From Thermanaeromonas toyohensis ToBE (GTDB taxonomy: Bacteria > Bacillota > DSM-521 > Neomoorellales > Neomoorellaceae), in NCBI RefSeq assembly GCF_900176005.1, contig NZ_LT838272.1:2189587-2253586 (forward strand): DNA of 64,000 nucleotides, given 5' to 3'. Shown here in pieces: positions 24,875 to 28,668 of the stretch; positions within the stretch are counted from its first letter, which is position 1, and each line of letters starts with the position of its first letter. A program made the position numbers and the translations under genes. The notes beneath the pieces were generated by a model. That model was not told the DNA's origin, did not search any database, and saw nothing but the letters and a program-made list of their open reading frames with translations.

Positions 24875-25822
24875 TTATTTTTCGCTCCCATTATCTGATA
24901 TTTTGCTCCCAGCGTCAAGTTTAACCTCAGATATAAGCTTACTAAAATGGGAATAACTTCTCCTTAAACCCCAGTGGAAAACCCAGGGCAGGTGTAGCAG
25001 GGAACCTAAATGGGTTAAAGGGGAAGCGTATCTATCTACTTTTATAAGCCGGACAGAATCCTTATCTAGGCCCCAAAGGGAAAGAAATCCTTCTACAATT
25101 TGGTGAAGCAAATTGAAATAGGGTCCTATGGCTGTTGCATAAACTTTAAGACCATAGGGGTCTTCGCCTACAAATAAGAGCTGGCCCGGTTTCTTCTTCC
25201 AAAAAGTATTTTCCCTAGGATATTCATCAAGATATTCTAGAGGGGAACCTGCACTGACGCGTAGGTATAAAGTAGCCGCAGCCAGGGCCAATGCGAGGGT
25301 GCGGGAAGAAGTGAAAATAAGGAGGCGGGAAGGTTTTTCCCTAGGTGAAAGTTCAACTGGAAAAGAGGAGACCCGGAGAGGACTTAAAGTTTCTACTAGG
25401 CTTACTAGGCTAGGGTAAGCCCGCTTTACCCCCCAGGTTACCAAGGGCCTTCCCAAGAAAGTAAGGCCCAAGCGACGGGAAAGGAAGCCTCCTAGGGCCA
25501 TCCAACAATTCACCAAGGGCGTAGTATCTAAAAGGAGGAGCTCTCCCCGGGGTAACTTAAGGGCCTCGGCTAAGTCATAAAGAAAATTTTCCAAAAGTGT
25601 ACCCATGCCCCGTTTACCTACGGCGTAGATTTCATGGCCGTAAGAGTCGCGACCCAGGAATTTAATTTCCCCTTCCTCGCCCCGGCGCCTTTGGTCGAAG
25701 TAAGGTATAGCTTGTATTTCGGCCGCACTGGGAAGGTGTTCTCGCGGAAGCCAACCCAAGTGGAGGGCGGCAGCAACTATAGAAGAGTGGGTTCCGCCGA
25801 AGCAGTGATAGATGATCTTCAT
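24875..25822 (-). CDS. Tandem DUF3189 protein
   Basis: A 315-residue protein beginning MKIIYHCFGGTHSSIVAAAL, the DUF3189 signature, at the ATG at 25822 (AAGGG upstream). The first unit (1-150) includes FLGRDSYGHEIYAVGKRGMG. A second, more diverged unit follows from about 165 (RLLIFTSSRTLALALAAATL, then FVGEDPYGLKVYATAIGPYF), so the gene looks like an internal duplication or fusion of two DUF3189 genes. Function unknown; the family is confined mostly to spore-formers. Confidence 0.75.
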   Translation of the reverse strand: MKIIYHCFGGTHSSIVAAALHLGWLPREHLPSAAEIQAIPYFDQRRRGEEGEIKFLGRDSYGHEIYAVGKRGMGTLLENFLYDLAEALKLPRGELLLLDTTPLVNCWMALGGFLSRRLGLTFLGRPLVTWGVKRAYPSLVSLVETLSPLRVSSFPVELSPREKPSRLLIFTSSRTLALALAAATLYLRVSAGSPLEYLDEYPRENTFWKKKPGQLLFVGEDPYGLKVYATAIGPYFNLLHQIVEGFLSLWGLDKDSVRLIKVDRYASPLTHLGSLLHLPWVFHWGLRRSYSHFSKLISEVKLDAGSKISDNGSEK

Positions 25823-25841
25823 GATTTCCCTTATAATTAGT

Positions 25842-26042
25842 CTAATGTCGAACAATAATCAAAAGGCCGTTTTCTAAATCGTGGGCTACAGCATCTAAGG
25901 TACGGCTTAAAATAAGCCCTAGTTTCTGCTGTTCTTCTTCGTCCTCAGCTAGAAAAATAGGAGAACCACCACCGCCTACCTTGTCGCTTGCCTGGCGGGT
26001 AGCCACCACGGCCAAGATCTGTCCTTTAAGTTCTATAGCTAT
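25842..26042 (-). CDS. Capping complex subunit for YIEGIA (apparent AUA start)
   Basis: A 66-residue protein whose sequence (AIELKGQILAVVATRQASDK, GGGGSPIFLAEDEEE, AVAHDLENGLLIIVRH) matches the small partner proteins encoded next to YIEGIA genes in spore-forming Clostridia. The frame has no ATG, GTG or CTG at the expected N-terminus. Homologous sequence begins at ATA (26040-26042), eight bases after a strong AGGAGG. Either AUA is used or ATG has mutated. An in-frame TTG exists nine codons in but lacks a site. The YIEGIA gene is 1.7 kb upstream, separated by an IS110 element. Confidence 0.7.
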   Translation of the reverse strand: MAIELKGQILAVVATRQASDKVGGGGSPIFLAEDEEEQQKLGLILSRTLDAVAHDLENGLLIIVRH

Positions 26043-26188
26043 TATTTATCCCTCCTATCTCAATTTTTTGCTTAAATCTCCCTCTATCTCTCGCTCTCTT
26101 AGATTTTCAAGTTTTTCATCCTCCATCTAAGAAACGAGAGAGAAGGGTTAAAAATTACCATGGGTATTTTTGAGTATTTTTTATCCTA

Positions 26189-26364
26189 AGGTTTTGGGTG
26201 GACCCTCACCTTAAAATTCGCCCCCAGGCTACCCTATCATTTCTCGCAGGGTCTTGCCCTTTCATTCCTTCGTCCTGCCTTAAGGGGGCGGGTGGGGCCT
26301 GCCTTTACTTAATTACAGGGTCTATGCCCTTATGGAGGGATTTGGCTTCCCCCACCCAAAACCT
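26189..26364 (-). ncRNA. Candidate IS110-type bridge RNA / structured element end
   Basis: The 3' non-coding end of the IS110 element is enclosed by a perfect 13-base inverted repeat: AGGTTTTGGGTGG (transcript strand, 26352-26364) and CCACCCAAAACCT (26189-26201). Inside are two near-identical hairpin motifs, AGGGCATAGACCCTG (26316-26330) and AGGGCAAGACCCTG (26247-26260), plus CGCCCCC/GGGGGCG arms that can pair. A closed RNA with two similar loops is the layout expected for the target- and donor-binding loops of IS110/IS1111 bridge RNAs. Its position downstream of the transposase is like the IS1111 group. The other part of the gap, 26050-26181, holds a weaker stem-loop (26091-26141). Confidence 0.5.
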
Positions 26365-26374
26365 CCCTAGCTCT

Positions 26375-27655
26375 TTAAGCTACTTTCTTTAGTTGTTCTT
26401 CCCGGTATTTCCCTAATACTTTGCTGGCATCATATTCCTTCTTCTGGGTAATAAGGGTAAACATCACCCGCACTAGCTTTAAAGCCACAGCTACTAGAGC
26501 CTGCTTCCTCGTTAAAGGATTTTCCGGCCTCTTTAGGAAATAGTGATATAGCGCTTTAAATTCTTTGTTCTTAGCCACTAGAATAAGGCTCACCTGGTAA
26601 AGTAGATTCCTTAGCCCCGGCCGACCCCTCTTGGATATGGTGGTCTTGGCCTTCTGTTTCTTCCCCGATTTCTGGGCCGTTAGGTTATAACCAGCTAGTT
26701 TCCGTATCTGTCTCCAGTGCTGGTATTTCGCTGGGTCACCTATCTCCCCTAAAAAGCCTGCCGCTGTTACTACCCCTACCCCAGGAATGCTTAAAAGATA
26801 ATTCGCTAAACCTGTCTCCTCTAGGTATCGCCCCATGGCTTCCTCTGTCTTCCTTATTTGACCTTGGTAAAACTCGATTTCTTCCAAGCAGGCTTGAAGT
26901 TTGACTTTAGCCCCTTCTAGCCCTTCTTTAACACCTATGCTCTTTTCTGCTGCTTGCCTTAGAGCAAGAGCCCTCTTTATCCCTACTCTACTGTTCGAGG
27001 CCTGTTTTAGCCCTTCTTCTAGTTCTTCTAACTTTAGGCTTAATATGTCCTTAGGAAAGGGACAGTTCCTTAAGACCCACTGGGCTGCCTTGCCTAAAAG
27101 ACTCTTAAATACTTCCATTAGCTCGGGAAAATATTCATCTACTATGGCTTTAAGCTGGCAGAGGGCAGCGTTAAGTTTTTTGTGTTCCTGCTGCCGGGTA
27201 ATATAAAGGGTCCTCAGTTCTGCATATATCCCTTCCGGTAAGATGCAGTGCAAGAATTTGCCCTCTTTTACCAGTTGGGCTATAAGGCCTGCATCCTTGC
27301 GGTCGTTCTTGTCTTGGCTATTGTCTTCCATCTCTTTGCTGTTTTTAACGTGATAAGGATTTACAATTACTACAGTGTAACCTGCCTCTTTTAGGAAATA
27401 GGCTAGAGGTTTCCAGTAGTGTCCTGTGGGTTCCATGCCTATAATGATACGTTCCGCCTTCTCTTTCTCCTTGGCTTCGCTTATTTTCCCTAGTAGACGG
27501 CAGAAACCTTCTCTGCTATTATGAAAGTAGAACGGTTTTACTACGTCGATACCCATGCTGTTATATATCCGGGCGTAATGGTTTTTCTTAGCTACATCCA
27601 CTCCCACGATCAGCACGTTGCCATAAACTAAGGCTTTCTTTTCGGCCTTTTGCAT
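26375..27655 (-). CDS. IS110 family transposase (DEDD recombinase)
   Basis: A 426-residue transposase. It has a RuvC-like N-terminal DEDD domain (GVDVAKKNHYARIY, IGMEPTGHYWKPLA, NDRKDAGLIAQL) and a C-terminal Tnp_20 domain with SIPGVGVVTAAGFLGEIGD and the TISKRGRPGLRNLLYQ block. It is full length with no frameshift, so probably active. AGGAGG precedes the ATG by about 11 bases, inside one arm of a hairpin (27665-27714). Confidence 0.95.
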   Translation of the reverse strand: MQKAEKKALVYGNVLIVGVDVAKKNHYARIYNSMGIDVVKPFYFHNSREGFCRLLGKISEAKEKEKAERIIIGMEPTGHYWKPLAYFLKEAGYTVVIVNPYHVKNSKEMEDNSQDKNDRKDAGLIAQLVKEGKFLHCILPEGIYAELRTLYITRQQEHKKLNAALCQLKAIVDEYFPELMEVFKSLLGKAAQWVLRNCPFPKDILSLKLEELEEGLKQASNSRVGIKRALALRQAAEKSIGVKEGLEGAKVKLQACLEEIEFYQGQIRKTEEAMGRYLEETGLANYLLSIPGVGVVTAAGFLGEIGDPAKYQHWRQIRKLAGYNLTAQKSGKKQKAKTTISKRGRPGLRNLLYQVSLILVAKNKEFKALYHYFLKRPENPLTRKQALVAVALKLVRVMFTLITQKKEYDASKVLGKYREEQLKKVA

Positions 27656-27664
27656 CGCTTGCTC

Positions 27665-27714
27665 GCCTCCTGGTATCTGAGGTTTTGTCGTTCAATTCCT
27701 TTCTACCAGGAGGC
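27665..27714 (-). promoter_or_regulatory. Hairpin sequestering the transposase ribosome-binding site
   Basis: GCCTCCTGGTA (27704-27714 on the transcript strand) and TACCAGGAGGC (27665-27675) form a perfect 11-base stem with a 28-base loop. The 3' arm contains the AGGAGG of the transposase. Many insertion sequences hide this site in transcripts that read in from outside, which limits transposition. Confidence 0.6.
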
Positions 27715-27777
27715 TTTCTTATTGGCAACGGCTATCCTAAATCATTACAGGAATGCTTAACTTGTTTGGGTTTATCT

Positions 27778-28668
27778 TTAATCTGCGGCCGCCCGGCCAA
27801 TACGGCTTTTTAAAGGACGGGTGACGGCGCTCTCTAGTACTGGTGTCATACGGACCGCCTGAAGGAGGCATTCCATATCGGGTTCATTGGGAAGGATATA
27901 GAGGACTACTTCGCCTGTATCAATGTTTTTGCAGGCCAAGGGTTTCCAATCTCGTTCGCTGATATCTACTTTGGTCCCCAAGAGGCTCGCCACTGTATGG
28001 AGTATGGCTTGCCTCTGCCCCGCATCGTGTAAGATGGCCCTGGCATCGTCGTTTTTGGGCTTTATAATTACTGCCCGGCCCTCCCGCAAGATCTTTTCCC
28101 GGGCTTTTTTTAGACCTATATTGGTAAGGACCACTCCCTGAATGGTTAAAAAAGGTCCTTTGAAGGTTATGCTGGCCGGTTCTACGGTGGCTATTTCCCC
28201 TAAGTATTTCCCCCGCCTTAAATGGCCACTAATATAGATTAACACTAAACCTAAGGCTACCCCTACGCCCCAGTGAAAGTAAAAGGTGGCTAGGCTACTT
28301 CCCAGGGAAGTAAGCATGACCAGGTAGTTGCGGGACTCAAAAACCCGGGCGATGCCTTCGATGTAGTCCCGTCCCCGGGGAACAAGTTCTAATTCTTCCA
28401 GCTCAGCTAAAGATTTACGTTCTAAGTTACGGATCTCCCTGAACTGTTGGGCTGCCAGCGCCAGGAAAGTCACCGCTGTGTATTCCCGGGCCGCCAAAGC
28501 TGGAACAGCCACAGCTCCAATTAAGGAAGCTATGGCTGCCAAGGAGAGATGGGTTATTACACTATGAGGATAACCGGGATAACGGCGATAATCGGTACGG
28601 AGAAGGTATATCCTACAGGCCAGGCCGGAAGCCATTCCCACTACTAAGGTTAAAGCCAGGGAATCCAT
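27778..28668 (-). CDS. YIEGIA family membrane protein
   Basis: A 296-residue protein with several hydrophobic segments in the first 160 residues and the name-giving motif in GRDYIEGIARVFESRNYLVM (about 98-117). The soluble C-terminal half contains LHTVASLLGTKVDISERDWK. The family is found in spore-forming Clostridia beside a small capping-complex subunit; the molecular role is not known to me. It is two bases downstream of spoIIP, supporting a sporulation context. The IS110 element lies directly downstream. Confidence 0.88.
   Translation of the reverse strand: MDSLALTLVVGMASGLACRIYLLRTDYRRYPGYPHSVITHLSLAAIASLIGAVAVPALAAREYTAVTFLALAAQQFREIRNLERKSLAELEELELVPRGRDYIEGIARVFESRNYLVMLTSLGSSLATFYFHWGVGVALGLVLIYISGHLRRGKYLGEIATVEPASITFKGPFLTIQGVVLTNIGLKKAREKILREGRAVIIKPKNDDARAILHDAGQRQAILHTVASLLGTKVDISERDWKPLACKNIDTGEVVLYILPNEPDMECLLQAVRMTPVLESAVTRPLKSRIGRAAAD

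What the first reader, a model, noticed from the sequence alone, without database searches (positions are those of the whole stretch)
25842..26045. Capping-subunit gene with AUA in place of a normal start codon
The conserved protein begins exactly at ATA, eight bases after AGGAGG, and the codon before it is also ATA, then a stop. No ATG or GTG exists near the expected N-terminus. AUA starts are very rare; infC AUU is a comparable special case. It may also be an ATG-to-ATA mutation after IS110 insertion removed selection.
Basis: partly seen in the sequence, partly recalled or inferred. Interest (0 to 1): 0.5.

Follow-up and report, generated by a model that had tools for sequence, protein, structure and literature searches.

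The report
AUA-start gene behind Shine-Dalgarno-targeting IS110
A small conserved bacterial gene really has AUA where its relatives have a normal start codon, and the mobile element just upstream sits inside the gene's ribosome-binding site, apparently because its guide RNA matches that kind of site, leaving the site usable.

Summary
The YIEGIA_cap gene (PF21835) has no ATG/GTG/TTG at its expected N-terminus. ATA (26042-26040) lies at the usual family start position, 8 nt after AGGAGG, with an in-frame TAA two codons upstream. The genus mate (Thermanaeromonas sp. bin 19) has ATG there. The ORF is intact and conserved (dN/dS 0.09 against that species). Of 100 usable family members 4 lack a canonical start; a control gene gives 5 of 98, so non-AUG starts are not enriched. 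This genome's infC also has only ATT/ATA. Most likely the gene is still translated, weakly, from AUA; a dead start or a TTG ten codons in remain possible.

The larger result is upstream. The IS110 ends inside the gene's Shine-Dalgarno (SD): its end ..GATAG abuts the target's GAGGG, rebuilding AGGAGG. All 8 genome copies end at an SD-like string; seven are followed by an ORF (one short, one cap itself). Its 3' noncoding end looks like a bridge RNA; its guide AAATCCCTCC complements GGAGGGAT, and guides covary with flanks over 13 lineages (p=5e-5). This looks like an RNA-guided element aimed at SDs, a variant of a known kind. The IS did not remove the SD or create the ATA.

The parts
25842..26042 (-). 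YIEGIA_cap gene read from the second ATA (66 aa)
   Evidence: Pfam PF21835 E 1.7e-23
26040..26042 (-). ATA at the family's usual start position, 8 nt after AGGAGG
26043..26045 (-). preceding ATA codon (alternative AUA start, 5 nt after AGGAGG)
26046..26048 (-). in-frame TAA that excludes any upstream start
26013..26015 (-). first in-frame canonical start, TTG (rival start; codon L10 of the family)
26051..26056 (-). Shine-Dalgarno AGGAGG, AG shared with the IS110 right end, GAGG from the target
26055..27755 (-). IS110 unit, 1701 bp including one copy of the AG core; 8 full-length copies in the genome, one of them with a broken transposase
27756..27757 (-). left AG (putative core dinucleotide on the target side; could be shifted by a base)
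26375..27655 (-). IS110 transposase, DEDD + Transposase_20, 426 aa
27665..27714 (-). left-end hairpin whose arm contains the transposase SD
   Evidence: z -5.96
26232..26357 (-). predicted bridge/seekRNA core in the 3' noncoding end
   Evidence: conserved across relatives with variable guides
26334..26343 (-). target guide 1 AAATCCCTCC, complement of GGAGGGATTT (anti-SD-like)
26308..26315 (-). target guide 2 TAATTAAG, same sense as the left target half
26263..26270 (-). candidate donor guide AAGGAATG, its AGGAATG complementary to IS left end CATTCCT
26232..26240 (-). candidate donor guide ATGATAGGG, resembling IS right end GAGATAG
27778..28668 (-). YIEGIA gene, upstream neighbour now separated from cap by the IS
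   Evidence: Pfam PF14045 E 1.5e-116
24875..25822 (-). DUF3189 gene downstream of cap
   Evidence: Pfam PF11385

Best explanation
The cap gene starts at AUA (26042-26040), an infrequent start codon read by the initiator tRNA with a third-position mismatch (established knowledge), helped by a strong SD at near-ideal spacing, and so probably made at a low level. The SD survives an IS110 insertion because the element is RNA-guided to SD sequences: one strand of its bridge-RNA target loop (CCCUCC) pairs with GGAGGG, recombination occurs at AG in TTA-AG-GAGGG, and the right end (GATAG) joined to the target's GAGGG re-forms AGGAGG ahead of the same start region. Shown: the sequence, the insertion geometry in 8 copies, guide/flank covariation, empty orthologous sites in the genus mate, an intact conserved ORF. 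Inferred: that ribosomes initiate at AUA, that the RNA is made and guides insertion, the exact core, and that the ATG was lost by a point change.
For: Usual family start position with an in-frame stop upstream. SD/anti-SD duplex -12.7 kcal/mol for this ATA against -5.4 for the TTG; of 9 other genes of the window computed alongside only one is stronger (-14.4, 16S tail recalled, not read from this genome). Genus mate has AGGAGGATGAAGC-ATG-GCT. The 6 invariant and 8 near-invariant residues of a 51-sequence alignment (the window among them) are all present. dN/dS 0.093, no stops. Own infC reads AGGAGGTGACGA ATT ATA AGC, with an in-frame TGA one codon before ATT. AUA/AUU starts in S. aureus gave about 10% of AUG, up to 30% for ccpN AUA in rich medium (passages). 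IS: 8 of 8 own copies read ..GATAG|G(A/T)G(G/A)G; 13 lineages, 25 copies: guide 1 match 59.3 against 45.2 permuted, p=5e-5 (positions beyond GGAG alone p=0.0055); guide 2, 11 lineages with a left flank, 29.3 against 16.7, p=3.5e-4; a conserved stem whose internal loop carries both guides; orthologous sites without the IS at cap, hcp and folE in the genus mate.
Against: No expression data. ATG at the aligned site in the only other genome of the genus; the pairwise selection estimate mostly reflects time before the IS insertion. No excess of non-AUG starts in the family: 4 of 100 for cap against 1 of 98 (lenient) or 5 of 98 (comparable rule, p=0.75) for YIEGIA. An AAAGGA-N6-TTG start exists ten codons in. 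No sigma-70-like promoter on the gene's strand in 25700-27900 (no terminator-like site on it either), so transcription is unclear. For the guide: L046 matches 1 of 7, L150 and L052 3 of 7; the covariation term of the RNA fold is small (-0.47); guide positions were delimited after seeing the data.
Confidence: 0.6

Rival explanations
1. The ATG was lost by mutation and the cap gene is now silent or nearly so, an early pseudogene behind an IS insertion that split it from YIEGIA.
For: ATG in the genus mate; the IS separates cap from YIEGIA, which is found on the same strand near cap in 98 distinct loci; no promoter-like site on this strand.
Against: No stop or frameshift, conserved residues kept; SD present and strong after insertion; a family mate (G003) also has only ATA near its N-terminus, with no IS in its intergenic stretch.
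Confidence: 0.22
2. Translation starts at TTG 26015, giving a 57-residue protein that lacks the first nine family residues.
For: AAAGGA-CAGATC-TTG is a passable start; residues 1-8 have no secondary structure in the model and the first ten average pLDDT 70.
Against: Duplex energy only -5.4 against -12.7 kcal/mol; it removes near-invariant I9, the first residue of strand 1; 96 of 100 usable loci have a canonical codon 3-16 codons before I9, a few of them off the usual position.
Confidence: 0.12
3. Sequencing error: the true base is G (ATG).
For: One base separates it from the genus mate's ATG; only one genome of the species is held.
Against: Single-contig assembly listed as 99.99% complete; it would have to be a substitution error; a similar ATA occurs in G003.
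Confidence: 0.06

Closest known systems
infC AUU/AUA start and S. aureus AUA starts (infC, ccpN, citZ; PMC13009471, passages)
   Same: Non-AUG AUN start behind a strong SD, expected to lower output; the window SD also contains the paper's AGGNAT search motif (AGGGAT)
   Different: No sign of autoregulation by IF3; the genus mate uses ATG; no expression evidence
IS110/IS1111 family with bridge RNA or seekRNA (PMC11208160, PMC11187229, passages)
   Same: DEDD + Transposase_20 transposase, RNA region with two-strand target loop and donor-like strings, top-strand complement first and 3' noncoding end as described for IS1111
   Different: 426 aa transposase is of IS110-subgroup size (395-455 aa in the passage read) and no long exact subterminal inverted repeat was found; the target is the Shine-Dalgarno
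IS900 of M. avium subsp. paratuberculosis (PMC8141618, passages)
   Same: IS110 family; published target motif CATGNNNNNNTCTCCTT, whose reverse complement AAGGAGANNNNNNCATG reads as SD plus start codon (my reading; that IS900 lies at start signals is also recalled, from no call)
   Different: Motif includes ATG; the paper itself does not mention Shine-Dalgarno (0 occurrences), and another paper reports AGCTGG, not AGGAGG, as the SD motif of this organism (PMC7823733, passages), which weakens the parallel

Membership tests
YIEGIA_cap (PF21835) | Profile match above the gathering score | tested here: met
   82.4 bits against cut-off 24.1
YIEGIA_cap (PF21835) | Gene next to YIEGIA | tested here: inconclusive
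   Same order and strand, but 1.7 kb of IS110 lies between; YIEGIA lies on the same strand in the fetched stretch in 98 distinct loci, and its end directly precedes cap in the genus mate and others printed
Functional AUA start | No canonical in-frame start at the N-terminus and AUA at SD spacing | tested here: met
Functional AUA start | Initiation at AUA shown by protein or ribosome data | not testable with these tools
   no expression data held
IS110 family transposase | DEDD_Tnp_IS110 and Transposase_20 domains | tested here: met
IS1111 group | Longer noncoding region downstream of tnp, top-strand guide first | tested here: met
   3' end 318 nt, 5' end 100 nt (from the coordinates); guide order
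IS1111 group | 7-17 bp subterminal inverted repeats | tested here: inconclusive
   exact matches only were sought; best 7-9 bp and not subterminal at both ends
Bridge RNA / seekRNA | Guides complementary to the element's own target | tested here: met
   permutation p=5e-5 (13 lineages) and 3.5e-4 (11 lineages)
Bridge RNA / seekRNA | Match to a curated RNA family (not truly defining) | tested here: inconclusive
   no Rfam match to E 1 in 25800-27800; whether Rfam holds any bridge RNA was not checked
Bridge RNA / seekRNA | RNA expressed and bound by transposase | not testable with these tools
   needs RNA-seq or co-purification

The most novel reading that the evidence does not exclude
A clade of RNA-guided IS110-type elements carries a target guide that imitates the 16S rRNA anti-Shine-Dalgarno (one relative's guide, AATCACCTCC in L051, contains ATCACCTCC, the recalled anti-SD string, though its flank fits only 4 of 7). 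It uses translation start signals as near-harmless landing sites, regenerating the SD so that even a gene with an AUA start can remain translated behind the insert.
Probability: 0.55. Interest if true: 0.6.

Novelty: new variant of a known kind. Interest (0 to 1): 0.42.

Why it matters
If true, an RNA-guided recombinase has settled on a short sequence that very many bacterial genes offer and that can be rebuilt at the junction, a simple solution to inserting without killing the gene. The AUA start adds a checkable natural case of initiation without AUG/GUG/UUG sustained by a strong SD.

Tried and rejected
Upstream start or coupling to a small IS-end ORF (MEDEKLENLREREIEGDLSKKLR, ending TAG at the junction): rejected; in the relatives printed that I read by eye the frame is interrupted or lacks an ATG. 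Excess of non-AUG starts in the cap family: not established; 4 of 100 against 1 of 98 (lenient rule) or 5 of 98 (comparable rule; p=0.75) for YIEGIA. Outward promoter in the IS end: no sigma-70-like match on that strand (3 found, all on +; 2.4 expected). Rfam: nothing. Long exact subterminal repeats: not found. The 195-nt end RNA alone is not unusually stable (z -1.51). IS copies left out of the guide test: L049, L153, L154, L157 (right end missing, cut by the contig end or unreadable in the fetched stretch) and the distant L066, L043, L044. Partial transposase matches (L051, L052, L055, L057, L061) were kept, as were the poor fits L046 (right flank TTCCTTC, 1 of 7), L052 and L150 (3 of 7).

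One search (YIEGIA or 'capping complex') listed 10 of 245 papers, none containing YIEGIA; the other 235 were not seen. No listed title (25 of 70 listed), 38 or 63 (20 of 375 listed) concerns SD-targeting bridge RNAs; the library is open-access only, so this is weak evidence of absence. Passages only, no whole papers, were read of PMC13009471, PMC11187229, PMC11208160, PMC8141618 and PMC7823733.

Full report
What is there. On the minus strand the sequence reads ..TTGAGATAGGAGGGATAAATAATAGCTATAGAACTT... The frame of the conserved protein is closed by TAA at 26048-26046, then ATA ATA GCT ATA GAA CTT AAA GGA CAG ATC TTG, so no ATG, GTG or TTG can serve before TTG 26015. The protein from the second ATA is YIEGIA_cap, PF21835. 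Searches (26 of 61 genomes matched, own included; 80 kept of 168) gave 101 distinct homologous loci. One (L070) is cut by its contig; in the other 100 the start assigned by rule is ATG in 60, GTG in 18, TTG in 18, and none in 4: the window (ATA), a family mate G003/L012 (ATA at -6, 8 nt after GGAGG), L028 (CTG at -8) and L132 (CTG at -6). Two more, L105 and L124, have only off-position canonical codons, with CTG and ATT at -8. The window's ATA is at the commonest position, -8. The genus mate, named Thermanaeromonas sp. bin 19 in its record, has ATG there.

Is AUA special to this family? A control on the upstream neighbour YIEGIA in the same loci found no canonical start in 1 of 98 by a lenient rule and in 5 of 98 by a rule comparable with that used for cap (4 of 100 against 5 of 98, p=0.75). 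I therefore claim no enrichment.

Is it likely to be used? For: strong SD (duplex -12.7 kcal/mol against -5.4 for the TTG; only 1 of 9 other window genes computed is stronger), an intact and constrained ORF (dN/dS 0.093 against the genus mate) and conserved residues present. The model (mean pLDDT 90.4) begins strand 1 at residue 9, so the TTG start would lose near-invariant I9. The own-genome infC has AGGAGGTGACGA ATT ATA AGC with an in-frame TGA one codon before, so this organism has at least one other gene without a canonical start at its N-terminus. In S. aureus non-canonical AUA/AUU starts gave roughly 10% of AUG, up to 30% for one (PMC13009471, passages). Against: no expression data, ATG in the genus mate, and the gene is split from YIEGIA by the IS.

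The IS110. A search of the own genome with the gene and its leader showed the leader repeated at seven other places, the match ending at the gene (an eighth match is only 33 nt). The full-length element occurs 8 times, one copy with a broken transposase. Aligning the copies, the left end starts CATTCCTG after AG and the right end finishes TTGAGAT-AG, followed by GAGGG (six copies), GAGAG or GTGGG. The pre-insertion site is thus read as TTA-AG-GAGGG, an SD. Of the 8 copies, 5 are followed by a canonical-start ORF of at least 60 codons at SD spacing (hcp-like, LysM-like, a 71-codon ORF, symporter-like and folE-like; names are my reading of the sequences), one by a 40-codon ORF, one by cap (ATA), and one by none. 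Among AGGAGG strings in the window 16 of 81 have such an ORF by the same rule: 5 of 8 gives p=0.016, and 12 of 25 with the relatives gives p=0.009 (copies are not independent, the background is this window only, and loss of harmful insertions could contribute). In the genus mate the cap, hcp and folE orthologues have sites without the IS: SDs AGGAGGATG and GGGAGGGAAA for cap and hcp, and a weaker GGCAGG for folE, whose upstream sequence also matches the IS's left flank.

The guide. The element has a 318-nt 3' noncoding end. Relatives (about 55-69% transposase identity over the matched parts) keep its RNA core but differ in two short stretches. These lie on the two sides of an internal loop between a GGGTGGGG/CCCCACCC stem and an AGGG/CCCT hairpin (10 sequences, 18 pairs, 4 with two-sided changes, covariation term only -0.47), the layout described for a bridge-RNA target loop. 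In the window copy they read AAATCCCTCC and TAATTAAG. Guide 1 fits the actual right flank here in 7 of 7 positions. Other full fits are L039, L047, L061 and L148 (7/7), and guide 2 in L150, L151 and L155 (4/4). Over 13 lineages and 25 copies, own guides fit own flanks better than swapped ones: guide 1 p=5e-5 (none of 20,000 permutations reached it), its outer positions alone p=0.0055, guide 2 over 11 lineages p=3.5e-4. L046 (1/7), L150 and L052 (3/7) fit poorly, and the guide limits were set after seeing the data. Strings like the IS ends (AGGAATG, ATGATAG) follow as a candidate donor loop and are conserved, as expected if the ends are conserved.

Meaning. Guide 1 resembles the 16S anti-SD (recalled sequence), so an element of this clade would land in SDs and hand the downstream gene an SD again. 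The ATA lies 12 nt beyond the junction and was neither made nor removed by the insertion. IS900's published motif (PMC8141618, passages), read in reverse, looks like SD plus ATG, so targeting of this signal may have a precedent; a paper that gives AGCTGG as the SD motif of that organism (PMC7823733, passages) speaks against a simple parallel. The RNA-guide explanation in this clade is the new part.

Noticed in passing
L147 (G000:C1:2623156-2623365 -): infC of the same genome has only ATT or ATA at its N-terminus (AGGAGGTGACGA ATT ATA), with an in-frame TGA one codon upstream of ATT.
   Followed up: partly
L012/L069 around 1501: A family mate's cap gene also lacks canonical starts at its N-terminus and has ATA 8 nt after GGAGG, at a different codon (-6).
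   Followed up: partly
window 27665-27714: Left-end hairpin (z -5.96) would hide the transposase's own SD, perhaps from outside transcripts.
   Followed up: partly
L064/L065 (G000:C1:2089118-2090244): One IS110 copy (that of L039) appears broken in its transposase: two partial matches with stops.
   Followed up: no
L059/L061 (G014:C2:9471-12826): A related IS110 transposase gene is split by about 2 kb of other sequence, its guide 1 and right flank still fitting 7/7.
   Followed up: no
G000:C1:931111-931143 and 836464-836554: Short isolated matches to parts of the IS110 (33 nt at its end-side, 91%; 90 nt of another part, 83%), possible remnants.
   Followed up: no
G007-G017 (genus g7): None of 11 genomes of this related genus gave a cap match at E 0.001, although some other family mates did; absence not proven.
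   Followed up: no
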